Assembly: GCF_023278185.1 (NCBI RefSeq)
Contig: NZ_CP066356.1
Location: 8,362,001-8,426,000, forward strand
Direction of reading: 5' to 3'
Origin: Bradyrhizobium elkanii USDA 76
GTDB taxonomy: Bacteria > Pseudomonadota > Alphaproteobacteria > Rhizobiales > Xanthobacteraceae
DNA: 64,000 nucleotides
Shown here piece after piece: positions 35,053 to 46,521 of the stretch. Position numbers and translations under genes: made by a program. The notes under the pieces were generated by a model. The model had not been told where the DNA came from. It saw only the letters and a list, made by a program, of their open reading frames with translations, and ran no database searches. The first letter of the stretch is position 1. Every line of letters starts with the position of its first letter.

Positions 35053-35209
35053 ATCATCAACGATATATCCGATTTTTTCTTCATTGCACACAGGGGGCGG
35101 CTATGGCAAATTGGGAGCGGTAAGAGGGGTTGAAAGCGGCTTTCCGATCCCAGCAAACGATCCCCGTTTCTCCTCGACCGATCCCAGTTGCGGCACAGGA
35201 GGAAACGCC

Positions 35210-36451
35210 ATGCCAAGCCTGACCGACACCGCGATCCGACATGCGTTGAAGCGGGTGGAGCTAAGTCAGAAACAGGAAAATCTCGCCGACGGTGAAGGGC
35301 GCGGCACCGGCCGCCTCGTGCTTGTCCTCAAGCCCATGCCGAAGCGCGTCACCGCCGACTGGATGGCGCAGCAATGGCGCGATGGGAAGCGGACCAAGAA
35401 GAAGCTCGGGGCTTATCCCTCCATATCGCTCGCCCAGGCACGCGAAATATTCAAACGCGACTTCGCCGACGTCATCCAGAAGGGTCGCAGCATCAAGATC
35501 GCTACCGACACGCGCCCCGGCACCGTCGCTGATCTGTTCGAAGGCTATGTCGCCGCGCTCAAGGATGCGAGCAAGCCGTCCTGGAAGGAAACGGAAAAAG
35601 GCCTTAACAAGATCGCCGACACGCTCGGACGCAACCGCCTCGCTCGCGAGATCGAGGCCGAGGAAATCATCGAGCTGATCCGCCCGATCTACGAGCGCGG
35701 TGCCAAATCAATGGCCGACCATGTGCGCTCCTATCTCCATGCCGCCTTTAGCTGGGGCATGAAGTCTGACAACGACTATCGGCAGCAGTCTTCCAGACGC
35801 TTTCGACTCCCTTTCAATCCGGCAACCGGCATTCCTACCGAGCCTAAGATCCAGGGCACGCGCTGGCTTGACGAAGACGAGTTTGTGCAACTCTATCGCT
35901 GGCTGGAGAGCCCCGACACGCCGGTCCACCCCTCCTATCCCCGCGCGGTGCAACTCATCATGCTGACAGGGCAGCGCGTCGAGGAGATCGCGCGGTTTCA
36001 TGTCAATCAATGGGACGCCAGTGAGCGAATCATCGACTGGTCGAAGACCAAGAACCTCCAGCCGCACGCTGTCCCAGTGCCATTGCTTGCCGCCGAGCTG
36101 ATCGAAAAGATCAAGCCGAACGAGTATGGCTGGTTCTTCCCCTCCGCCAAGGACCCCTCGAAGCCTGTCAGCCACGGCACTCTTTATAGCTTTGTTTGGC
36201 GGCAGCGAGATCGCGGCGTGATTCCATATGCGACAAACCGCGATCTCCGGCGCACGTTCAAGACGCTCGCCGGCAAGGCAGGCGTGTCGAAGGAAATCCG
36301 CGATCGCCTCCAGAACCACGCGCTACAGGATGTCAGCTCCAAGCACTACGACCGCTGGCACTATATGATCGAGAAACGCGCTGGCATGGCGAAATGGGAC
36401 AAATTCGTGCGCGCCATGCTGGCGAAGAAGCGACTGAAAGAGGCCGCATGA
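35210..36451 (+). CDS. Tyrosine integrase, P4-like
   Basis: A 413-residue recombinase from ATG 35210 behind AGGAGG. The N-terminal region (RVTADWMAQQWRDGKRTKKK, LGAYPSISLAQAREIF) is an arm-binding/DUF4102-type domain, followed by a core-binding domain and a catalytic domain. Catalytic residues: Arg in TGQRVEEIARFH, the H-x-x-R box as RDLRRTFKT (Arg in the first His position), and QDVSSKHYDRW with the nucleophile Tyr. Its position next to the radC break makes it the likely driver of insertion. Its stop overlaps the nuclease gene start (ATGA). Confidence 0.92.
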   Translation: MPSLTDTAIRHALKRVELSQKQENLADGEGRGTGRLVLVLKPMPKRVTADWMAQQWRDGKRTKKKLGAYPSISLAQAREIFKRDFADVIQKGRSIKIATDTRPGTVADLFEGYVAALKDASKPSWKETEKGLNKIADTLGRNRLAREIEAEEIIELIRPIYERGAKSMADHVRSYLHAAFSWGMKSDNDYRQQSSRRFRLPFNPATGIPTEPKIQGTRWLDEDEFVQLYRWLESPDTPVHPSYPRAVQLIMLTGQRVEEIARFHVNQWDASERIIDWSKTKNLQPHAVPVPLLAAELIEKIKPNEYGWFFPSAKDPSKPVSHGTLYSFVWRQRDRGVIPYATNRDLRRTFKTLAGKAGVSKEIRDRLQNHALQDVSSKHYDRWHYMIEKRAGMAKWDKFVRAMLAKKRLKEAA

Positions 36452-37791
36452 GCTCGCGGCCGCGAAAGCCCCCTCGCCGCAGCGATGCGCTCGGTTCCGC
36501 TGGCGAAGTGGACGCGCAAAGCTACACGGCGTTCGTCGGGGATCTGAAGCAGAAGATCGCGGCGGCACGCCACCGAGCCAGCTTGTCGATCAACCGCGAG
36601 CTAGTGACGCTCTACTGGACGATCGGGCGCGACATCCTGGAACGGCAGGAGCGCGAAGGTTGGGGTGCCCGGGTGGTCGACCGTCTGGCTGGCGATCTTC
36701 GCCTGGCTTTCCCGGAAATGACCGGTTTATCGCCCCGGAATCTGAAATACATGCGCTCGTTCGCCGAGGCCTGGCCCAACGGCGAATTTGTGCAACAGGT
36801 TGTTGCACTATTGCCATGGGGGCATAACGTCCGTTTGCTCGACGCCGTCAAAACGCAGGAAGAGCGCACCTGGTACGCGCGGCAGGCAATTGAACACGGC
36901 TGGAGTCGTAACGTTCTTGTCCATCAGATCGAAAGCAAGCTTTTTGCCCGGCAAGGAAGCGCCCTCACCAATTTCTCGCGAACCCTGCCCGCAGAGCAGT
37001 CCGAGCTTGCCCAACAAATCCTCAAAGACCCCTACACGTTCGACTTCCTCTCGCTTGGCCCAGACATGCTGGAGCGCGACCTCGAGCGTGGTTTGGTCGA
37101 GCATCTGCGTTCACTCATCCTCGAGCTCGGCAAGGGCTTCGCATTCGTCGGCAGCCAATATCACCTCGAAGTCGGCGGGCAGGATTACTACTTGGACCTT
37201 CTTTTCTATCATCTGCGTCTTCGCTGCTTCGTGGTGATCGAGCTGAAGATCGAAGACTTCAAACCCGAATTTGCGGGAAAGATGAACTTTTACCTCTCGG
37301 CCGTGGACGAGCAATTGCGCCATCCCGACGACAAACCGACCATCGGCATCATCTTGTGCAAAGGGCGCAACGAGGTGATCGTGGAATACGCGTTGCGAGA
37401 CTCCAGCAAACCGATGGGGGTCGCCCAGTATCAGCTCTCGGCTGCGTTGCCGCCACAACTCGAGGATGCCCTCCCGACGGCCGCGGAGTTCGCGCGAGAA
37501 TTTCCACTGATGTCCGTGGTCAAGCTACGCATCGAAATCGAGCGCGCGGTACGCGATCTCGCGGACAAGCGAGGCGTCGCTTTCGACCGGCCGACCGGCA
37601 TCATGAAAATGCTCCGTGATCTGCATCGAAATGGATCGGTGCCAAGTAGCACAGAGCAGATGCTCGACGCCCTCCACACCATGAACGAAGCTACGCATGG
37701 CATGGATGTGGACCCGGAGACCGCTGAACGCGCCGTCGAAATCGGCACGATCTTCCTTGGGGAACTCCAGAAACTGAATACAGACGAGTAA
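36448..37791 (+). CDS. DUF1016/YhcG-type PDDEXK nuclease with C-terminal extension
   Basis: A 447-residue protein. DUF1016_N at about 25-190 (INRELVTLYWTIGRDI, GLSPRNLKYMR). PDDEXK domain at about 195-345 with Asp250 in GGQDYYLDLLFYH and Glu265-Lys267 in VVIELKIEDF. An extra helical domain (about 352-447, RIEIERAVRDL..MNEATHGMDVD) is not part of usual YhcG proteins of about 340 residues. Members are linked to recombination or defence. ATGA overlap with the integrase couples their translation. Confidence 0.85.
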   Translation: MSSRPRKPPRRSDALGSAGEVDAQSYTAFVGDLKQKIAAARHRASLSINRELVTLYWTIGRDILERQEREGWGARVVDRLAGDLRLAFPEMTGLSPRNLKYMRSFAEAWPNGEFVQQVVALLPWGHNVRLLDAVKTQEERTWYARQAIEHGWSRNVLVHQIESKLFARQGSALTNFSRTLPAEQSELAQQILKDPYTFDFLSLGPDMLERDLERGLVEHLRSLILELGKGFAFVGSQYHLEVGGQDYYLDLLFYHLRLRCFVVIELKIEDFKPEFAGKMNFYLSAVDEQLRHPDDKPTIGIILCKGRNEVIVEYALRDSSKPMGVAQYQLSAALPPQLEDALPTAAEFAREFPLMSVVKLRIEIERAVRDLADKRGVAFDRPTGIMKMLRDLHRNGSVPSSTEQMLDALHTMNEATHGMDVDPETAERAVEIGTIFLGELQKLNTDE

Positions 37792-37792
37792 G

Positions 37793-39046
37793 GTGCTTTT
37801 CGCGGCAAATCCGACACCGACAAAACCCCAGAAAGCACAGGACAATCTCGTGGAAGACAGCTGGCCGACGTGGCTCAAAATTATGGAGAACGGCGCCGTC
37901 GGAGAAGCGCGTACGCGTTCTTTTCTCATCGACCGGTTCTGGGTTCTCGAGCGGAGCGTAGATACCGACGGGGCCGATTTTCTCATACAGCGACGCACCA
38001 CCACGCAGCGATTTACCGATAGAGTCCCGCCGCGCGTCGGAGTGATACAGGCAAAATATTTTCAGGATCGCCGCACAACGCACTACATTCCCAAAAGCTA
38101 CGTGGTTGACGACAAAGGAATGCCGCTCGAAGGCTTCTTCGCGCTTCTTCACGTCGGCCGGGAGGACGACGGCGAGATGTACCTGCTGTCGGCCCGGCAA
38201 ATCGTCAACACGCTATCCATCAGCAGCACCCATTCACCGGAAAGCTACGTCGTCGGCACGACTGCGCTCCAAGGCACTTTTAGATTTAATGCCCGTAAGC
38301 TCGCACTCGATCAGATCGAGCATAGCTTGAAGAGCCAGACCTACTACCAGTCGGCCGCCTTCCTGGACAAGCTCAACATTCCCTATCGGCGCTTCAGCGA
38401 AGACGACATCGACTTTCCTTGGACACTTCCGCTTCCGAACCCCGTCGGTGAAATCCCGAAGATGTTTGTTGAGCAAAAAGAGGAGCTCAGAAAGATCGTT
38501 TTCGACATGGAGGAGGTGTTGGGAGCCATCGACGCGGTCCTTACAGAAAAAGACCCGCGTCGAGCGCTCGAGCTGATGGACGCGCTGCGTTACCATGTCG
38601 ATGGTTACGGCAAGATCACCTTCGGCGGCCGGGGAGACTTCAACTGGGGCGATTTTCCAGACGCCCTCGACACCCACGACCGCTGGCGCCAAGGCCTCCA
38701 GACAGACGGACTGCTAGAGCCTTACATCGCAATGGGCGATAAACTGCAAGTGGCTCTTGTATCCCATACAGCCGCTCATCCGCTAACCGATAAGGGCAGC
38801 TTCCTCCAGGCGATCATTGAATATGATCGGGATACGCTCAACGTCATTGAGCTGTCGGTCAAATCGGGCACGGCCGCCGAGAGGGAACCGGAAATCAAGA
38901 CCCCCGGGCATGTCCGCATGGCAAGCTCGCTCGGCGAGTGGGTCCCACGCAAAATCAAACCGATGGACTACACGATCGAGAACGTCTGGTGGAATGTCAT
39001 GCGCTACGTCATCGAAGAGCGCTATCCCGACCCACACTTCGACTAG
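37793..39046 (+). CDS. DUF4365-like putative nuclease
   Basis: A 417-residue protein starting at GTG, two bases after the nuclease stop. Residues 33-150 look like a DUF4365/PDDEXK fold: GAVGEARTRSFLIDRFWVLE, Asp in TDGADFLIQRR, then VIQAKYF with Q-x-K. The rest has no family I recognise; it contains a charged helix (KEELRKIVFDMEEVLGAIDA). Together with the upstream gene this looks like a two-nuclease module. Function unknown; a defence role is inferred from context. Confidence 0.6.
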   Translation: MLFAANPTPTKPQKAQDNLVEDSWPTWLKIMENGAVGEARTRSFLIDRFWVLERSVDTDGADFLIQRRTTTQRFTDRVPPRVGVIQAKYFQDRRTTHYIPKSYVVDDKGMPLEGFFALLHVGREDDGEMYLLSARQIVNTLSISSTHSPESYVVGTTALQGTFRFNARKLALDQIEHSLKSQTYYQSAAFLDKLNIPYRRFSEDDIDFPWTLPLPNPVGEIPKMFVEQKEELRKIVFDMEEVLGAIDAVLTEKDPRRALELMDALRYHVDGYGKITFGGRGDFNWGDFPDALDTHDRWRQGLQTDGLLEPYIAMGDKLQVALVSHTAAHPLTDKGSFLQAIIEYDRDTLNVIELSVKSGTAAEREPEIKTPGHVRMASSLGEWVPRKIKPMDYTIENVWWNVMRYVIEERYPDPHFD

Positions 39047-39136: not shown

Positions 39137-41626
39137 TTAACGGCGATCTAACCGGCGATAGTATCGCTTCTGTCCGTTACTCGGATCAACGTAGGTAAAG
39201 CAGTCCGCGAGACTATCAATGCTCTGCAACACCCCCAGCAAGGCGTAGGCGTTGAAAGGCGTCCCCGCGCCGGTCTCGTAGTGGCTGACGAAATTCCCAA
39301 CGATCGATGGCACATGATGGTTTTGGAGATCGGCGATCTGCTGAGGCGTCAGCACACACCGATTGGCCGCATGATAAAGCTTCACGGCCTCGCCGATTGC
39401 GTCGATGTAGGTCGAAAGCGTCCGCTTGTCACCACGGGTGGCATAGTCCGGTGGAACAGGGATCTCCAACTTGGCGATAATCTGTCCCAGCTTGTATTCG
39501 AGATATTGCCGCAGGATCGGCGCACCAATATCGATCTGGCCAGCATTCAGGTGCTGCAACGCCTGCGCCTTGAGACGATCCGCCTCCTGGGCCGATACCA
39601 TGAGCCGCCCCTTTGGAGGCATGCCTTGGAGCTTCTGGTGATGCCAATCCGCAGTGCCATTGAGCTTGTCGAAGTACTTCTCCAGGCTGGTGTCATGGCT
39701 CAGGAAAATGAACTGCAGCCCGTCCGGCACAGCGCCATAGCGTAGCAACGTCCGCACGGCGTCCATCAACGCGAACTGGTGACCAGCGTCAAAGCTCGAT
39801 GTCACGTCGTCGAGCACCATGAAGCGCGGAACACCGCTGTGCTTGGTCGCGGCCGCGAAGAAAATCGCAGCCGCCACAGCGTTCCGATAGCTTTCCGAGA
39901 GTAGAGCCCGGGCACTGAGGTCCTGTAGGCCGAAGAAGTCCGCGAGCTTTAGATCAACGTTTTCGCTGTTCTGCGCGCGGCTCAGGGTCGGCTTCACATC
40001 GGGACCGCCTCGCACGAACCGGCCGAACAGATCCTGACAAGCGGTCTGAATCTCGCCAATCCGCTCGTTGGCCAGTTCGGCTTCGGCATCAGCAAAGCTT
40101 TGGCCGGCGCGCGTGATGAATGTCTTCCAGCGATTCAGAACCTTGAGCTTGTCCTGTTTCACCTTGAGCACCGGCTCGCCGCTCTCGTATTCCAGCACGG
40201 CATCGCGGAACTGCTTTGCGAAGCTGAGGATGCGGGTTACCTGCACCAATGAGGGAGGCAAGCGCGCCTGCAACGCGTCGGCCTCACCTCGCACCCGAGC
40301 AAGAGTTTCGCCACGCTGCGTTTCAAGAACCCCGAGGCGCGCCTTGATGATCTCCAGGTCGGAGGTCGCCAAATCCCCCTTCTTGGCGGCCAAATCGAAC
40401 GCTACGTGCAAGCGATCACCCGTCGCGATCGCCATGGCCGGCGCCTCTTCAAGCTTGCGTAGCTTCGCGATCCCAGGCGCTGTGGCGACATCGTTGATGA
40501 GTTCGGCCCCGAGCTGAGCGGCTACATCGTATTTAGCGATCTTGCCTTCCAGCCGCGGCTTTAGAGCATCACTACCTTTCGCCTCGCAAACTGGGCATTG
40601 ATTCGGGTCGTGCCAATCGGAGCCGGACACCACAGCCAGCGCATCGCGCAAAAGGGCGTGCAATGCTTCCGCGCCGACGCTGCGCACGGCCTCGTCTCTT
40701 CTTCCGGCCAACTCGAGCAGCCGATCAACGTCGGCCAATTCCTCTACCGTGACCTCAAGCCCCGCCAGCGACGTGGCGGAGGTCGTTAGCGTGTCCAGCG
40801 TCTTTCGCGCTTCGCCGCCTTCCTGTTTCTCGATCGCCAACTCTGCCGCTTCGAAATCGAGATCCATTACCGAGGCCTCGCCGATCAATGGCTTGAGCAA
40901 GGCGATGGCGGATAAGGCGGCGGTTACCGCCGCCTTCAGATCGGAGAGTTTATCGACGGCGGCGCTTCCCGCTCCGGCGACCTCGTCATGCGCCGCAATG
41001 ACACGCCGCTCGATCGCACTCAACGCGCGCGCGCCTGTGGTCACCTCGGCATCAAGCGCGGAGAGGCCCAGATCACTGTTGACGTTCTGCGTTCGCTTGG
41101 CGCCGTCCAGAGCCTGACGTAGCCGGGAGTATCGGCTCAGTCCCACGAGCGATGCGAAAGAACGTCCCCGCTCCAAGGCGGAGATATCGATGAGCTTTGC
41201 GAACCGATTATAGTCGACGAGGACGAAATCCTCCTGCAGGCTCGCGAGGAACTGCTGCGGGTCGGCATGACCGCTCGGCGAAGTCACTAGGCGCGCACCG
41301 TTGGCAGCCCGCACCACCTTGATCGCCACATCTGGCGAGGCGTCATCGCTGGCGAATATCAGATCAACCGTCGCTTGCTGCCCGGGATGGAAGCGATTCA
41401 CGATATAGCTGTCGCCCTGCTCGGCTTCCTGGAGCGCCTTCAGGCGCGGGACAATGCCGTGGATCGCGAAGCAAACGGCTTCGAATATGGAGCTTTTACC
41501 GACGCCGTTCGGCGCATGCACCGAGTTGACGGCGTCAGATTTGAACTTGAGGACGAGCGGGTCACCGTCATTATTGATCCCACGAAAACCCTCGATGGAC
41601 AGGCTGCCCAGGAAATACCGCGTCAT
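39137..41626 (-). CDS. SMC/Rad50-like ATPase with zinc hook
   Basis: An 829-residue AAA/ABC-type ATPase. Walker A APNGVGKSS at 38-46. Two coiled-coil arms surround a Rad50-like CPVC at 344-347. A signature-like LSARALLSESYRN lies near 570-582, Walker B FMVLDDVTSSFD at 602-613, and the H-loop LSHD at 642-645. After the ATPase head a separate domain of about 150 residues (675-829) ends in NHHVPSIVGNFVSHYETG and has no family I can name; it may be the effector. The start overlaps the 74-residue gene stop by 4 bases. A defence function is likely by analogy to other SMC-like ATPases. Confidence 0.75.
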   Translation of the reverse strand: MTRYFLGSLSIEGFRGINNDGDPLVLKFKSDAVNSVHAPNGVGKSSIFEAVCFAIHGIVPRLKALQEAEQGDSYIVNRFHPGQQATVDLIFASDDASPDVAIKVVRAANGARLVTSPSGHADPQQFLASLQEDFVLVDYNRFAKLIDISALERGRSFASLVGLSRYSRLRQALDGAKRTQNVNSDLGLSALDAEVTTGARALSAIERRVIAAHDEVAGAGSAAVDKLSDLKAAVTAALSAIALLKPLIGEASVMDLDFEAAELAIEKQEGGEARKTLDTLTTSATSLAGLEVTVEELADVDRLLELAGRRDEAVRSVGAEALHALLRDALAVVSGSDWHDPNQCPVCEAKGSDALKPRLEGKIAKYDVAAQLGAELINDVATAPGIAKLRKLEEAPAMAIATGDRLHVAFDLAAKKGDLATSDLEIIKARLGVLETQRGETLARVRGEADALQARLPPSLVQVTRILSFAKQFRDAVLEYESGEPVLKVKQDKLKVLNRWKTFITRAGQSFADAEAELANERIGEIQTACQDLFGRFVRGGPDVKPTLSRAQNSENVDLKLADFFGLQDLSARALLSESYRNAVAAAIFFAAATKHSGVPRFMVLDDVTSSFDAGHQFALMDAVRTLLRYGAVPDGLQFIFLSHDTSLEKYFDKLNGTADWHHQKLQGMPPKGRLMVSAQEADRLKAQALQHLNAGQIDIGAPILRQYLEYKLGQIIAKLEIPVPPDYATRGDKRTLSTYIDAIGEAVKLYHAANRCVLTPQQIADLQNHHVPSIVGNFVSHYETGAGTPFNAYALLGVLQSIDSLADCFTYVDPSNGQKRYYRRLDRR

Positions 41627-41847
41627 GCCTTGTCCTCGCCCAGAGGGATGGACATGCCATCAAGCGCATCCAGTACCGCCTTATGAAACTCGCCGATTGT
41701 TGCCCGGCTTGGCGCGGTGTCACCTCCCGAATCCAGCAGATGCAAATTGTCGAAGAGGATCTTCGCGCATTCGGGATCGATCTGTACAGCCTCGGCCCTA
41801 AACAAAGCGAGATTGTCCTCGAAAGTATTTTCCAGCTTAAACTTCAT
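41623..41847 (-). CDS. 74-residue partner of the SMC-like ATPase
   Basis: Small acidic protein, MKFKLENTFEDNLALFRAEA, then DPECAKILFDNLHLLDSGG and IGEFHKAVLDALDGM. Predicted helical. No recognised family. It lies between the XRE regulator and the ATPase with an ATG/TGA overlap to the latter, so the two are almost certainly made together. It could be an adaptor, inhibitor or antitoxin. Confidence 0.7.
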   Translation of the reverse strand: MKFKLENTFEDNLALFRAEAVQIDPECAKILFDNLHLLDSGGDTAPSRATIGEFHKAVLDALDGMSIPLGEDKA

Positions 41848-41936
41848 ACGCTCCCCCGACTTCCGCCCAATGCACTTCTATTTGATTTCAGTGCGCGCGT
41901 GCAATTCTGCGACGATCAAGCGATTGCGTCTCATCA

Positions 41937-42713
41937 TCAGGCTGTCTCTGTTTCGTTGTCGCTCTTGCGAAGCTTCCGCCATGCCGGAAGGATGAACGGC
42001 TGCCCATGATCGATCGGCACGCGCATGGTGGTCTCGCCATATTCACCCGGCGGCCCTAGTGCTACGACCTGACGGCTTTGATAGGAGAACGGCTCGTCCG
42101 GCGGTGCGACCGTGTAGCGCTCCGGCAATCGCCTCAGAACCGAGGTTCGATAAATCCAGATGTCGTTGCCCTTGAGAAGGACGATGAGCTGTCGCAGGCG
42201 CCGGCGAACCGCGATCTCCGTCGCGGGGGGAATGTCGACGAGAATATCTCGCTGCGACCAGGACAAGCCAACGAGGATATCGAAAAGCTCCTGCGCATAG
42301 GCTCCAGTTTCCTCATCGAGCGTTGTCTCGATAATGCAGGCCACGTCGTGCGAGCGGGCCGCCTCCGTATAGAGCGCGCCCTCGTCCGCTGTCGCACTGG
42401 CGATGTCATAGTCGTTGCGGGGGATGAGCCGGTCCTCATCTTCCATCAGCGCGGAAAGGACTTCCGGCGCACTTACGGTCGGCGTCATTTCCGAAAGCTC
42501 GGAGCCAAGGATAATGCGTTCACGATGAACTTGCAGCGCTTTTGCCAACCGTTCAGCCGTTGTCACTGCAATTGGCGCATTCTCATTCTCGATCATACGA
42601 AGCATGCGAATGCTGACACCGATTTCACTCGCCATTTCCTTTTGGGTCGACAGCCTTTCAAGCTGCTCCCTCAGGGCTTTCACCGCCTTCCCGTTCGGCA
42701 CGACCTTCCTCAT
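41937..42713 (-). CDS. XRE-family regulator with unknown C-terminal domain
   Basis: A 258-residue protein from MRKVVPNGKAVKALREQLER. An HTH of the Cro/C1 type (TQKEMASEIGVSIRMLRMIE, AERLAKALQVHRERI) at about 12-65. The remaining 190 residues contain no family I know (IIETTLDEETGAYAQELFDI; LRQLIVLLKGNDIWIYRTS). First gene of the operon with the 74-residue protein and the ATPase. Divergent from the gene at 42900, with a tandem repeat in the shared promoter. Confidence 0.75.
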   Translation of the reverse strand: MRKVVPNGKAVKALREQLERLSTQKEMASEIGVSIRMLRMIENENAPIAVTTAERLAKALQVHRERIILGSELSEMTPTVSAPEVLSALMEDEDRLIPRNDYDIASATADEGALYTEAARSHDVACIIETTLDEETGAYAQELFDILVGLSWSQRDILVDIPPATEIAVRRRLRQLIVLLKGNDIWIYRTSVLRRLPERYTVAPPDEPFSYQSRQVVALGPPGEYGETTMRVPIDHGQPFILPAWRKLRKSDNETETA

Positions 42714-42846
42714 CTCAACCTCATCCCGTGTATTCGATGACTCAAAATTTACATGAGGGAGCCTGGCAGCGTGAGGCAGCCGACCGGAATCGGAGCGGCA
42801 CACTGGCGGCAAACCAGCAAACTGGGCAATTCAACGTGCAGTACCC

Positions 42847-42882
42847 TTGACTAGGCATTTATGACCGGCCATTTATGACCGG
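42847..42882 (+). promoter_or_regulatory. Tandem 13-bp repeats at a divergent promoter
   Basis: CATTTATGACCGG occurs at 42856-42868 and again at 42870-42882, a 14-base period. TTGACT at 42847-42852 could be a -35, with an AT-rich ATTTAT near the right distance for a -10. The repeats lie between the XRE regulator and the 42900 gene, so they are the best candidate for the regulator's operator. Confidence 0.6.
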
Positions 42883-42899
42883 TCAAGGAGACCTTTATC

Positions 42900-43454
42900 A
42901 TGCTTCGTTACAATCCGGAGAAATTCGCCTCGCTCTCGGAGTCCGACATCGGTCAGCGGATTTGGTCGTTTCTTACGAAGCCCGCCACTATCGCTCGCTT
43001 GGAGACGGCCTCGGAGCTCGGAAAGCCTGCCGTCGAGGGCATCGAGGAGCAGCTTCTGGAGGAGTTTCGCGAAGATGTTCTGGTTGACCGCGTCAAGCAG
43101 ATGGTCGGCCACATGGTCAGGCAGATATTGGAACAGCGCGATTGGGTTCTCGACCAAAGCGACGTGAAGGTTCAGTCGGTGCCCTTCAGCAAGGCGGCAC
43201 GTTACAGGCGGCCCGATTGGATCACCTTCCATGCCTTCCGCAATACCAAAGACCCGCGCGACGTCGTCATCACCGACCGTCGGCAGAACGCGCCTCTGCC
43301 GAAAGACGCTCGCTGGACCTTCTACGCAACCTTTGCCAGCCCCTTGAAGGCGGCGGTTGCGTTCGGCGTCAATGACACCCCCAAACTTCGCCGACAAGTG
43401 CAGACCCACGGTTTTCACCGTGTCCACATCCCGCGAATGCTGCGACGCGCCTAA
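42900..43454 (+). CDS. Conserved rhizobial hypothetical, 184 residues
   Basis: Starts MLRYNPEKFASLSESDIGQR, preceded by AAGGAG. Helical N-terminal half (PATIARLETASELGKPAVEG, VDRVKQMVGHMVRQILEQRD). A beta-rich C-terminal half with RYRRPDWITFHAF and ARWTFYATFASPLKAAVAFG. I recognise similar hypotheticals in rhizobia but know no function. No membrane or catalytic motif. It lies between the SMC-ATPase operon and the STAND gene, so it may belong to either. Confidence 0.6.
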   Translation: MLRYNPEKFASLSESDIGQRIWSFLTKPATIARLETASELGKPAVEGIEEQLLEEFREDVLVDRVKQMVGHMVRQILEQRDWVLDQSDVKVQSVPFSKAARYRRPDWITFHAFRNTKDPRDVVITDRRQNAPLPKDARWTFYATFASPLKAAVAFGVNDTPKLRRQVQTHGFHRVHIPRMLRRA

Positions 43455-43572
43455 TCCAGGAGAAATTGAAGGCATGATGCAGTTCAACGACAGGTGCGAC
43501 AGAGCGGATACCCATCGCCGAACGCGAGCGGCCATCGCACGCTTTTATTGAGCCATAACGAGACCGCCAGAT

Positions 43573-45360
43573 ATGGAAACGTTCAACCTTGATCCCCGTC
43601 AACTTGCCCGGATCGAAGCCGTTCATCGCGGGTTCCTCTATCAGCACCTCTATGCCGCCGCGTGTCTGTTTGATGCTGCCCGGGCCGGTGTGACCCATGT
43701 CATCGTCGAGAATGATGAAGACGTCGAACTCGTCCAGCCTGACAGACGAATCTACCTACAAGTCAAAACTCGGGCATCTAACCTTATTCTAAGCGACATT
43801 GATGGCGCACTCTCAAGGTTCGCGGCTATTAGACAGGAGCACGAGGAAGGTCGACGGAGCGGTTCATGCCAGTTCGTCATAGTATCGAATAGTGCGCCTG
43901 GGCCGGAATTTGCCAAGCTTATCACAGGTAAAGAATGGCCGTCCGACACCAGGCTCCATTGGCCGCAATCACCGGCGGTAGACGAAGCCCTTCCCTTGCC
44001 GTGGAGGACCATCGCGGATGGTTTCGAGGCGTGCCGAGCGGCTGCCGAAACGCTTCCTTTTTCCGTATTGGCTCCAGAAACCCTCGTCTGGAAAATCGCT
44101 GGCCGGATGATGGCAGCAGCGGGTGGGATTGAGCCAAGCTCCAATCACACGTTCACGGTTGAGGAATTACCGGCACTCTTCGAGCAGCTTGTTGTCCAAC
44201 TCCAAGATTTTCCTGCTCCGCCGCTTCGATATCGTCCGCAGGAACATGAACCAAATCTGGCAAATGGCCAACGCGTGCGGCTCGTCGTCGGCCTCTCCGG
44301 TGCAGGAAAGACGTCCTGGGTTTCTCAGACAGCTCTGCATACTTCTGACCGTCTGGCATATTACGATATTGCCGAGATATCCGGCCCTGCGCTGGCCAAT
44401 GCCGTCGCACGCGAACTTGCAGCTCGCATCTTCGGATCGCGTGGCGGCAAGCTAGGCGAGATCTTGTTACCGGGCGCAAGCGGCACCGAAATCCTGTTTG
44501 CGATCGGTCGCCACCTAGCCGAGGACAAACTCACCGCGACTGTGGTGTTGGATAACGCGCATCGCATTGCAGCCGCGGATTTGGTTTCGCTGGTCGGGGC
44601 CTCCGATCAGCTGCAGTTTGTGCTTCTCGCCCAGCCCAGCGCAACGATCGCCCGAATCGAGGCAACGCTTGGCGTGAAGGCGGAGTTGCTTCTCGGCTGG
44701 TCCAATGAGACGGCCGCGGCCGAGGGAGCGTCGCTCGGATGCCGTGGGGATTTCTCAGACTATGAGCGCTTGTTGAAAATCACTGGTGGGCTGCCGCTCT
44801 ACGTCCAGAATGCGCTGAAAATTGCGGCTGAAAGCTACGAGGGGGTGGTCACCCGAGTCTGCGCGGCGCTTGAGGACCGCACCCATATTGTCGAGACTGC
44901 GCAAGAACTTATTCTGTCAGATGTCTTCGACAGATTTAACGACCCTGAGCGCCGCGCTGTCGCGGCGCTCAGTCTCAGCGACGTCCCACTGACTCAATCC
45001 GAAGCCAGTGTCGTATTGAAGCGCGCCTTCGACCTCGAGCCGGAGATCGCGGCCACGGCATTCAGGCGATTGCGAACAAGCGGTACAATCCAGATTTTCG
45101 GTGTCGATCGTTTCAAGATTCACGATGCGATGAGACCGCTCGGCCGCACCTACCTGAGTGACGCCGGGGGTGAGCATCTGCAAAATGCACGCGAGGCCAT
45201 TCGCGACCTCCTTATAAAGGCACTACCCAACGATCACGACCGTCAAAGAGTTTTTCTTCTCCTGAGGATGTTTGTCGCTCTTGGGAACGTGAAGCCTCTC
45301 GTTGAGATGGCCACCGACGAGATATTTCACGAACTAGTCATCTGGAACGGAAGTTCGTGA
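43573..45360 (+). pseudogene. Nuclease-STAND ATPase (Avs-like), C-terminus removed by IS630
   Basis: 588 gene-derived codons and then seven codons from the IS. The N-terminal nuclease domain is DUF4297/Cap4-like: GFLYQHLYAAACLF, Glu46/Asp50 in VENDEDVEL, and Q63-V-K65 in YLQVKTR. A STAND NTPase follows: Walker A VGLSGAGKTSW (239-249), Walker B TVVLDNAH, and GGLPLYVQNAL. The start of a helical repeat sensor (FLLLRMFVALGNVKPLVEMA) is cut at the TA at 45335-45336. Avs-type defence proteins have this order and a long C-terminal sensor. The first part could still be expressed. Confidence 0.75.
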
Positions 45361-46521
45361 CATTAGTTGATCGCTCGGATCTCTAGAGAGGAGAGCGCTC
45401 GTGGCGAATGCAGGTGTGAAAGGCCGGCCGATCGCGCCGTTGGTGCTGAGTTCGCAGGAGCGGGCGTACTTGGAGAGGCAAGTTCGTCGTCATCGTGTAG
45501 CCCGATCGCTATCTGAGCGATGCCGCGCGATCCTGCGGTGTGCAGATGGTCTGCCAAGCAAGTCTGTGGCTGCCGAACTTGGCATCCATGAACACACCGT
45601 CGGCAAGTGGCGCCGCCGATTCTTGAAGGATCGTTGTGATGGCCTGCTTGACGAAGCCCGCCCGGGCCGCCCTCGAACCATCGACGATGATCAGGTTGCC
45701 GAGGTAATCGAGCGGACATTGCGTACGACGCCGCCCGACGCAACGCACTGGTCGATCCGCTCGATGGCTGCGGATACTGGCTTTTCTCACACCACGATCC
45801 GCCGAATGTGGACGGCGTTCGGCTTGCAGCCGCACCGCAGCCAGACATTTAAACTATCGAGCGATCCGCTATTCGTCGATAAGGTGCGCGATATTGTCGG
45901 GCTTTATCTGTCGCCGCCTAACCGAGCCGTTGTCCTCAGTGTCGATGAGAAAAGCCAGATCCAGGCACTCGATCGCGAGCAGCCGGTCTTGCCGATGATG
46001 CCTGGGGTGCCGGAACGTCGCACGCATAGCTATGTGCGGCATGGTACGACCACGCTGTTTGCCGCGCTCGATGTCGCTTCCGGCTTCGTCATTGGCAAAT
46101 GCTACAAGCGCCATCGGGCGCTCGAGTTCTTGAAGTTTCTCAAAGAGATCGACGCTCAAATCCCTGAGGGGCTCGCTGTCCATATCGTCATGGACAACTA
46201 CGCTACCCACAAGACCCCCAAGATTAAAGCGTGGCTCGCTCGCCGGCCGCACTATCATGTCCACTTCACGCCGACTTCCGCGTCGTGGATCAATCAGATC
46301 GAGCGCTGGTTCGCTGAACTCACCAGAAAGCAGATCCGGCGAGGTGTTCACACCTCCGTCAGGCAGCTCGAAGCCGACATCCGTACCTTCATCGAATTGC
46401 ACAACAACAACCCGAAGCCCTTCAAATGGACCAAGTCCGCAGACCAGATCTTGGCTTCCGTCAAACGCTTTTGCCACAAAGCCCAGCAGACTTTATGTGG
46501 CGAACTTTAGATTCATGTGAC
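45337..46521 (+). mobile_element. IS630-family element, complete, TA duplication
   Basis: 1185 bp. The left end GTCATCTGGAACGGAAGTTCG matches the inverted right end (GTCACATGAATCTAAAGTTCG) at most positions. Flanked by TA on both sides (45335-45336 and 46522-46523), as IS630/Tc1-type insertion gives. It inserted in the STAND ATPase gene. An IS5 element abuts its right end. Confidence 0.85.
45401..46510 (+). CDS. IS630-family transposase
   Basis: A 369-residue DDE transposase, apparently intact. N-terminal HTH (SERCRAILRCADGLPSKSVA, HEHTVGKWRRRF). Catalytic residues: Asp in LSVDEKSQ, Asp in IVMDNYATHK, Glu in SWINQIERWFAELTRKQIRRG. No frameshift. It is inside an element with matching ends, so it is probably active. 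Confidence 0.92.
   Translation: MANAGVKGRPIAPLVLSSQERAYLERQVRRHRVARSLSERCRAILRCADGLPSKSVAAELGIHEHTVGKWRRRFLKDRCDGLLDEARPGRPRTIDDDQVAEVIERTLRTTPPDATHWSIRSMAADTGFSHTTIRRMWTAFGLQPHRSQTFKLSSDPLFVDKVRDIVGLYLSPPNRAVVLSVDEKSQIQALDREQPVLPMMPGVPERRTHSYVRHGTTTLFAALDVASGFVIGKCYKRHRALEFLKFLKEIDAQIPEGLAVHIVMDNYATHKTPKIKAWLARRPHYHVHFTPTSASWINQIERWFAELTRKQIRRGVHTSVRQLEADIRTFIELHNNNPKPFKWTKSADQILASVKRFCHKAQQTLCGEL

What the first reader, a model, noticed from the sequence alone, without database searches (positions are those of the whole stretch)
39137..42713. Candidate undescribed defence operon: XRE + 74-residue protein + zinc-hook ATPase
Three genes in one operon with a 4-base overlap. The ATPase has Rad50-like CPVC, complete Walker and H-loop motifs and an extra 150-residue C-terminal domain (NHHVPSIVGNFVSHYETG) in place of a known nuclease. 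The XRE protein has a 190-residue domain of unknown type. It does not match a defence system I can name.
Basis: partly seen in the sequence, partly recalled or inferred. Interest (0 to 1): 0.8.

Follow-up and report, generated by a model that had tools for sequence, protein, structure and literature searches.

The report
RloC-like ATPase with small partner protein
Two overlapping bacterial genes encode a Rad50-like DNA-sensing ATPase, which probably carries its own RNA-cutting domain, and a tiny partner protein; they look like an undescribed relative of the phage-defence enzyme RloC, travelling on mobile DNA.

Summary
The three genes are real. The conserved unit is two genes, not three: the 74-residue protein and the zinc-hook ATPase. 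In 36 of 36 distinct loci holding the ATPase gene's 5' end a small protein is present, 32 as a separate ORF (29 with a 4-nt overlap) and 4 fused to the ATPase N-terminus. XRE accompanies 10 of 36; elsewhere it precedes a RloC-like AAA_13 ATPase, so it is an exchangeable regulator. The ATPase head and coils are Rad50/SMC-like. The "extra" C-terminal domain is probably the nuclease: it keeps R706-x3-E710 and N778-x3-H782 in 62 of 62 rows, like the RloC/PrrC anticodon-nuclease triad (PMC2610378, passages), in HEPN-like helix positions (PMC3710099, passages). But the E-H spacing (70-72) exceeds RloC's 36-52 and profile comparisons of this domain alone were not significant, so I say "works like RloC", not "is RloC". 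It lies on a low-GC island beside an integrase-like ORF and YhcG; close relatives carry Hachiman-type genes next to it. Verdict: probable two-subunit RloC-like ABC-RNase defence module, a new variant of a known kind; no activity shown.

The parts
39137..41626 (-). Rad50-like zinc-hook ABC ATPase (829 aa) with a C-terminal helical domain carrying R706-x3-E710 and N778-x3-H782
39140..39604 (-). C-terminal domain (residues about 675-829), predicted HEPN-like RNase effector: E710 in its second helix, H782 near the end of the helix 761-785
   Evidence: motif definition from PMC2610378 and layout from PMC3710099 (passages)
40586..40597 (-). codons of the zinc-hook motif CPVC (C344-C347) between the two coiled-coil arms
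   Evidence: residue n starts at 41626-3(n-1)
41623..41847 (-). 74-aa partner protein; 4-nt overlap with the ATPase; helical in the fused homologue (helices 16-30, 32-39, 42-47, 52-64 of P0161)
41848..41936 (-). 89-nt gap between XRE and the small gene, partly similar in close relatives; possibly a separate promoter (no consensus hit inside the gap)
41937..42713 (-). XRE-family regulator (258 aa) with a conserved C-terminal domain of unknown type; accessory, exchangeable
42714..42899 (.). divergent intergenic region with a conserved imperfect palindrome (42845-42888), candidate operator
35084..36451 (+). integrase-like ORF at the edge of a low-GC island (context, not part of the module)
   Evidence: named integrase by inspection, no family scan was run on it; start codon uncertain
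36478..37791 (+). YhcG/DUF1016 PDDEXK nuclease (PADLOC PDC-S02), island neighbour; start approximate (the ORF opens at 36196)

Best explanation
It is a two-subunit, RloC-like ABC-RNase defence module. The ATPase dimerises through its ABC heads and through the CPVC hooks at the tips of its coiled coils, and the small helical protein is a permanent subunit near the ATPase N-terminus. Binding of abnormal DNA (ends or structures made during infection or restriction) with ATP changes the head conformation and releases the C-terminal R-E-H RNase domain, which cuts RNA (most likely tRNA) and stops translation, and so phage or plasmid spread. The XRE protein is an accessory repressor that keeps expression low. 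Shown here: gene arrangement, two-gene conservation and natural fusions, predicted Rad50/SMC-like head, conserved hook and R-x3-E/N-x3-H residues, mobile and defence-gene context. Inferred: RNase activity, DNA trigger, zinc binding, dimerisation, role of the small subunit, repression by XRE, antiphage effect.
Against: Profile comparison of the C-terminal domain alone with AAA_13/RloC-like C-terminal domains was not significant: with 9 sequences probability 0.06%, score 2.50, beaten by 2 of 5 column shuffles (2.58 and 3.91); with 22 sequences probability 1.6%, score 17.8 against a best of 17.0 in 40 shuffles, and nothing in global mode. The E-H spacing is 70-72, not 36-52. The HEPN Rx4-6H arginine is absent (N at -4). 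No Pfam HEPN match in any of 21 C-terminal domains and no convincing PDB relative. The ATPase scores 18.1 bits against a 36-bit cut-off for AAA_13. pTM is only 0.50 and 0.59. 5 of 11 annotated plasmid members have no defence-like name nearby. No activity data exist here.
Confidence: 0.57

Rival explanations
1. A Lamassu/ABC-3C-type sensor: the SMC-like ATPase with a small middle component recognises DNA structures and controls an effector encoded elsewhere; the C-terminal domain is only a docking platform.
For: Best PADLOC profile is LmuB (PDLC03859, 1.8e-17, residues 18-653), next MADS Mad3 (4.1e-16); Foldseek lists Lamassu chains high (9uxh_F, 9hqx_B, 9hqu_B); zinc-hook LmuB homologues exist (PMC10586767, passages). 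A Cap4-like protein at 43573-45360 scores 2.5e-7 to a LmuA model.
Against: No LmuA- or LmuC-like gene was seen as a constant neighbour; the Cap4-like gene is in the window's lineage (window, L012, L013) but was not found in the held flanks of the 8 other XRE-bearing relatives. 17 small-family members matched no middle-component Pfam family. A docking platform does not explain R-x3-E and N-x3-H being kept in 232 of 240 homologues.
Confidence: 0.2
2. A toxin-antitoxin-like pair: the ATPase-RNase is the toxin and the 74-aa protein (or the XRE protein) is a labile antitoxin.
For: Small gene upstream with 4-nt coupling in 29 of 32 loci with a separate ORF; the XRE HTH resembles, among others, PezA and HipB-type antitoxin HTH domains.
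Against: In 4 of 36 loci and in at least 110 of 120 listed homologues of the fused type the small domain is covalently part of the ATPase, which does not suit an antitoxin that must be degraded; XRE was not found in 26 of 36 loci.
Confidence: 0.1
3. A plasmid- or island-borne DNA repair or maintenance ATPase (SbcC/RecN-like), not a defence system.
For: Rad50 fold; 19 plasmid records carry it; some neighbours are conjugation or metabolic genes.
Against: No Mre11/SbcD gene was seen paired with it in the loci read (L041 has a separate SbcCD pair nearby); far below the SbcC cut-off (16.8 against 478.5 bits); sparse, patchy presence (8 of 296 family genomes, the window's own included) with 93-96% identical copies in other genera, as for mobile accessory genes.
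Confidence: 0.13

Closest known systems
RloC (Rad50-like zinc-hook anticodon nuclease; stood in for here by AAA_13 proteins with RloC's Arg-X3-Glu...Ser-His pattern, one of them scored as PADLOC PDC-S06)
   Same: ABC head split by coiled coils with a CxxC hook; C-terminal Arg-X3-Glu ... (Ser)-His residues; size within 658-897 aa; mobile context and occasional R-M linkage
   Different: Separate sequence family (below the AAA_13 cut-off), E-H spacing 70-72 rather than 36-52, constant small partner or fused domain, LSESYR signature
PrrC anticodon nuclease
   Same: ABC ATPase with C-terminal Arg-X3-Glu...His nuclease; some members here lie beside R-M genes
   Different: PrrC lacks the hook and coil insert and is 341-416 aa (PMC2610378, passages)
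Lamassu LmuB / ABC-3C
   Same: Rad50/SMC-like ATPase, hook in many homologues, multi-gene defence loci
   Different: No LmuA effector or LmuC seen as constant neighbour; own C-terminal candidate effector; LmuB is about 650 aa (PMC10586767, passages)
Rad50/SbcC
   Same: Head fold, coiled coils, zinc hook
   Different: No paired Mre11/SbcD gene seen; extra C-terminal domain; below family cut-offs

Membership tests
RloC | Rad50-like ABC ATPase head interrupted by coiled coils | tested here: met
RloC | CXXC zinc hook at the coil apex | tested here: met
   CPVC 344-347; CPxC in 238 of 240; zinc binding itself not tested
RloC | C-terminal Arg-X3-Glu-X36-52-His triad | tested here: inconclusive
   Arg-X3-Glu and His invariant in 62 rows, kept in 232 of 240, but spacing 70-72 is outside the published range
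RloC | sequence homology over the whole protein to AAA_13/RloC-like proteins | tested here: not met
   AAA_13 18.1 bits against cut-off 36 and only residues 574-655; C-terminal domain alone not significant; one relative, L028, passes at 40.5 bits but only over residues 342-655. No characterised RloC sequence was at hand to compare directly
RloC | tRNA anticodon cleavage | not testable with these tools
   no experiment
HEPN superfamily | acidic residue in helix 2, catalytic His at the end of helix 3, insert between them | tested here: met
HEPN superfamily | Rx4-6H motif | tested here: not met
   no Arg 5-7 residues before H782 in the window protein; N778 at -4. The RloC-like proteins listed also show no constant Arg there (by eye)
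HEPN superfamily | fold match of the C-terminal domain | tested here: inconclusive
   searches aligned only the ATPase part; the domain was not folded alone
Lamassu | LmuB with LmuA effector and LmuC | tested here: not met
   LmuB profile 1.8e-17 for the ATPase, but no constant LmuA/LmuC-like neighbour seen
ABC-3C middle component | small protein belongs to a described middle-component family | tested here: inconclusive
   no middle-component Pfam match among 17 members; remote homology not excluded
SbcC/Rad50 | equivalog score and Mre11/SbcD partner | tested here: not met
   neighbourhoods

The most novel reading that the evidence does not exclude
An undescribed defence family: a Rad50-like hook ATPase that carries in cis a diverged R-E-H RNase and needs a dedicated small helical subunit, split or fused, which gates DNA sensing or silences the nuclease; one XRE regulator family is shared between this family and RloC-like AAA_13 proteins, pointing to a common control circuit for translation-stopping ATPases.
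Probability: 0.5. Interest if true: 0.66.

Novelty: new variant of a known kind. Interest (0 to 1): 0.56.

Why it matters
How DNA state is passed from a Rad50-like head to an attached RNase, as in RloC, is in my view still open. A family in which a small subunit is separable in some genomes and fused in others would give a handle on that control. The module is mobile (plasmids, islands) and occurs from Alphaproteobacteria to Actinomycetota. For the window's proteins Pfam, PADLOC 2.0.0 and NCBIfam 20 give only partial ATPase or HTH similarity, so surveys based on these would probably overlook it.

Tried and rejected
Three-gene operon: rejected as the general unit (XRE in 10 of 36 loci). Lamassu membership: no constant LmuA/LmuC-like neighbour. 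Direct RloC/AAA_13 membership: whole-protein hhalign is driven by the signature/Walker B/D-loop/H-loop stretch (residues 523-655), and the C-terminal domain alone is not significant. XRE C-terminal domain: no Pfam family; in the PDB profile search only weak hits (RsbU, E 0.2-0.7), not pursued. Class-wide draw of 385 genomes: only the window's own. XRE in the plasmid collection: no match at 1e-8. XRE in the family of G650: 1 of 39 genomes, that one itself. Rfam: nothing at gathering score in the window. Promoter scan: two consensus hits in 41600-43000 (mean 0.6 in shuffles), neither inside the 89-nt gap. Literature: eight searches; from the listed titles and abstract beginnings (up to 15 shown each) I recognised no paper on this pair. 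The library lacks most subscription papers and all bioRxiv preprints. The 2020 ABC-ATPase classification and the 2012 RloC paper were not held, so whether either covers this family could not be checked.
Full report
What is there. On the minus strand lie an XRE protein (42713-41937, 258 aa), a 74-aa ORF (41847-41623) and an 829-aa ATPase (41626-39137). The small ORF and the ATPase overlap by 4 nt; XRE and the small ORF are 89 nt apart. The window comes from a 9.5-Mb genome; contigs of Bradyrhizobium huanghuaihaiense and Bradyrhizobium sp. CCBAU 43298 carry ATPase, small and XRE at 100% protein identity.

The conserved unit. Loci came from three sources: genome searches, the genome-contig scan (21 loci) and plasmids (19 records, of which I fetched 12). 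Collapsing identical genes gave 38 groups. Two were dropped: the decayed second copy in the window's own genome (L002 group) and L031, which matches only residues 490-829. In the 36 that remain a small protein is present: 32 as a separate ORF, and 4 (L010, L041, L043, L044) as an N-terminal part of the ATPase. In the most distant loci the small ORF was recognised by position and a loose pattern, and identity to the window's falls to 16-19%. Of the 32, 29 show exactly the 4-nt overlap; L034 overlaps by 1 nt, L037 has a 12-nt gap, and L040 counts 7 nt from the aligned start (4 nt by its annotated start). The fused form is common: at least 110 of the 120 listed homologues of the L041 protein have it (the other 10 escaped the pattern). 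Split and fused small domains are homologous (hhalign probability 98%, E 5.6e-14, score 85; best of 40 shuffles 12.3). XRE is found in 10 of 36: window group, L005, L006, L014, L016-L020, L022. The other 26 gave no match: the genome loci by tblastn at 1e-3 within held flanks of about 1.5 to 6 kb, the plasmid loci by tblastn of the whole plasmid collection at 1e-8.

XRE is a shared regulator. This is one locus; a search of 385 genomes of the class found XRE only there and in the window.

The C-terminal domain. Among its invariant residues are R706, E710, N778 and H782. Across 240 listed homologues, 232 keep both R-x-Y-x-E and N-x3-H. RloC was defined by Arg-X3-Glu-X36-52-His with Ser often before His; G. 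kaustophilus RloC uses R692, E696 and H737, and mutating each abolished activity (PMC2610378, passages). RloC and PrrC nuclease domains are HEPN domains; in HEPN the acid, when present, lies in helix 2 and the His at the end of helix 3, with a variable insert between (PMC3710099, passages). In the model E710 lies in helix 698-720, the insert is 721-760, H782 is near the end of helix 761-785, and helix 793-808 follows; the fused homologue gives the same order. The insert can account for the longer spacing (70-72). Of 27 AAA_13 entries collected here, 22 gave a C-terminal domain with R-x3-[ED] followed by SH within 30-48 residues; the other 5 were L081 and L086 (one frame-broken gene), L072 and L077 (cut before the domain) and L076 (longer gap). 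The statistical side is weak: the real score (2.50) was beaten by 2 of 5 shuffles, with 22 sequences, the real local score (17.8) was just above the best of 40 shuffles (17.0), with a probability of only 1.6%, and global mode gave nothing. In that local alignment N778-x2-S-H782 falls on the N-x2-S-H of AAA_13. No Pfam HEPN family matched and no solved chain matched convincingly. I put the RNase reading at about 0.6 and the whole mechanism at 0.57.

Context. GC falls from about 0.65 to about 0.58-0.59 at 35-36 kb, where the integrase-like ORF starts, and stays at 0.575-0.635 to the window's end. Next come YhcG (PADLOC PDC-S02) and an unassigned 417-aa protein, then the module. In 8 of 8 XRE-bearing relatives with the upstream flank held, outside the window's lineage and L022, a HamB-like gene and the gene before it (HamA by position, not scanned) lie divergently beside XRE, after a 184-aa ORF (the HamB-like protein of L055, the same locus as L015, scores 1777 bits to PADLOC HamB); 7 of these 8 also keep YhcG and the integrase-like ORF (L017's contig ends first). 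In the window's lineage (window, L012, L013) these two genes were not found and a Cap4-type ATPase gene takes their place. L022 has XRE and the pair without these neighbours. L057 has a type III restriction gene and a DPPY-type methylase gene (read by eye) before the pair and a HATPase after it; L021 has FRG and HD-CE/HATPase proteins. Of 11 annotated plasmid members, 6 (L034, L036, L037, L038, L041, L044) have restriction-modification, Abi or anti-phage-associated names within 8 kb and 5 do not (L042 carries no annotation). Presence is sparse: 8 of 296 genomes drawn from the family, the window's own included, and in a draw of 385 genomes of the class only the window's own.

Mechanism. The most economical reading is RloC-like: heads and hook sense DNA state, ATP drives the change, and the C-terminal RNase disables translation. 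RloC is activated by linear DNA and by break inducers (PMC3874168, passages). The small protein, fused in some lineages, is best seen as a permanent subunit rather than a labile antitoxin. XRE probably limits expression; a conserved palindrome lies in the divergent region, but it is nearer the 184-aa ORF, so its user is unknown.

Comparison with known systems. By PADLOC score the nearest profiles are LmuB (1.8e-17) and MADS Mad3 (4.1e-16), but no constant LmuA/LmuC-like neighbour was seen. By architecture and residues the nearest is RloC. Because one RloC feature was not met (homology over the whole protein) and one was inconclusive (spacing), I do not file it as RloC; it is best called a RloC-like, two-subunit variant. 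Novelty: new variant of a known kind; interest 0.56.

Noticed in passing
window 42900-43572: The Hachiman-type pair that close relatives carry here was not found in the window: similarity to L055 runs through the 184-aa ORF and stops a few dozen bases into the next (HamA-position) reading frame; a Cap4-type ATPase gene follows.
   Followed up: partly
window 43573-46510: Cap4-nuclease/AAA protein (595 aa; weak LmuA-like N-terminus) followed directly by a transposase-like ORF at 45401-46510 (IS630-like by inspection); its C-terminus may be cut.
   Followed up: no
P0013, P0016, P0017, P0018: Four near-identical ATPases (97-99.9% over the aligned part), one of them named Bradyrhizobium, lose the reading frame or end at four different points between about residues 718 and 751 (by eye; blastp alignments end at 724-751), after E710 and before H782; intact copies exist. 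Possible selection against the last domain, or sequencing error.
   Followed up: partly
G000:C1:1336321-1337134 (L002-L004, L054): A decayed second copy of part of the ATPase gene, with stops, elsewhere in the same genome.
   Followed up: no
window 42845-42888: Imperfect palindrome well conserved in the 9 aligned intergenic regions between XRE and the 184-aa ORF.
   Followed up: partly
window 37793-39046: 417-aa protein without Pfam, PADLOC, NCBIfam or PHROG match, replaced by an unrelated-looking 253-aa protein at the same island position in L015, L016, L020 and L026.
   Followed up: partly
L053:8032-11039: XRE gene overlapping the probable start of a PDC-S06/RloC-like ATPase gene; the same XRE family as in the window.
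   Followed up: partly
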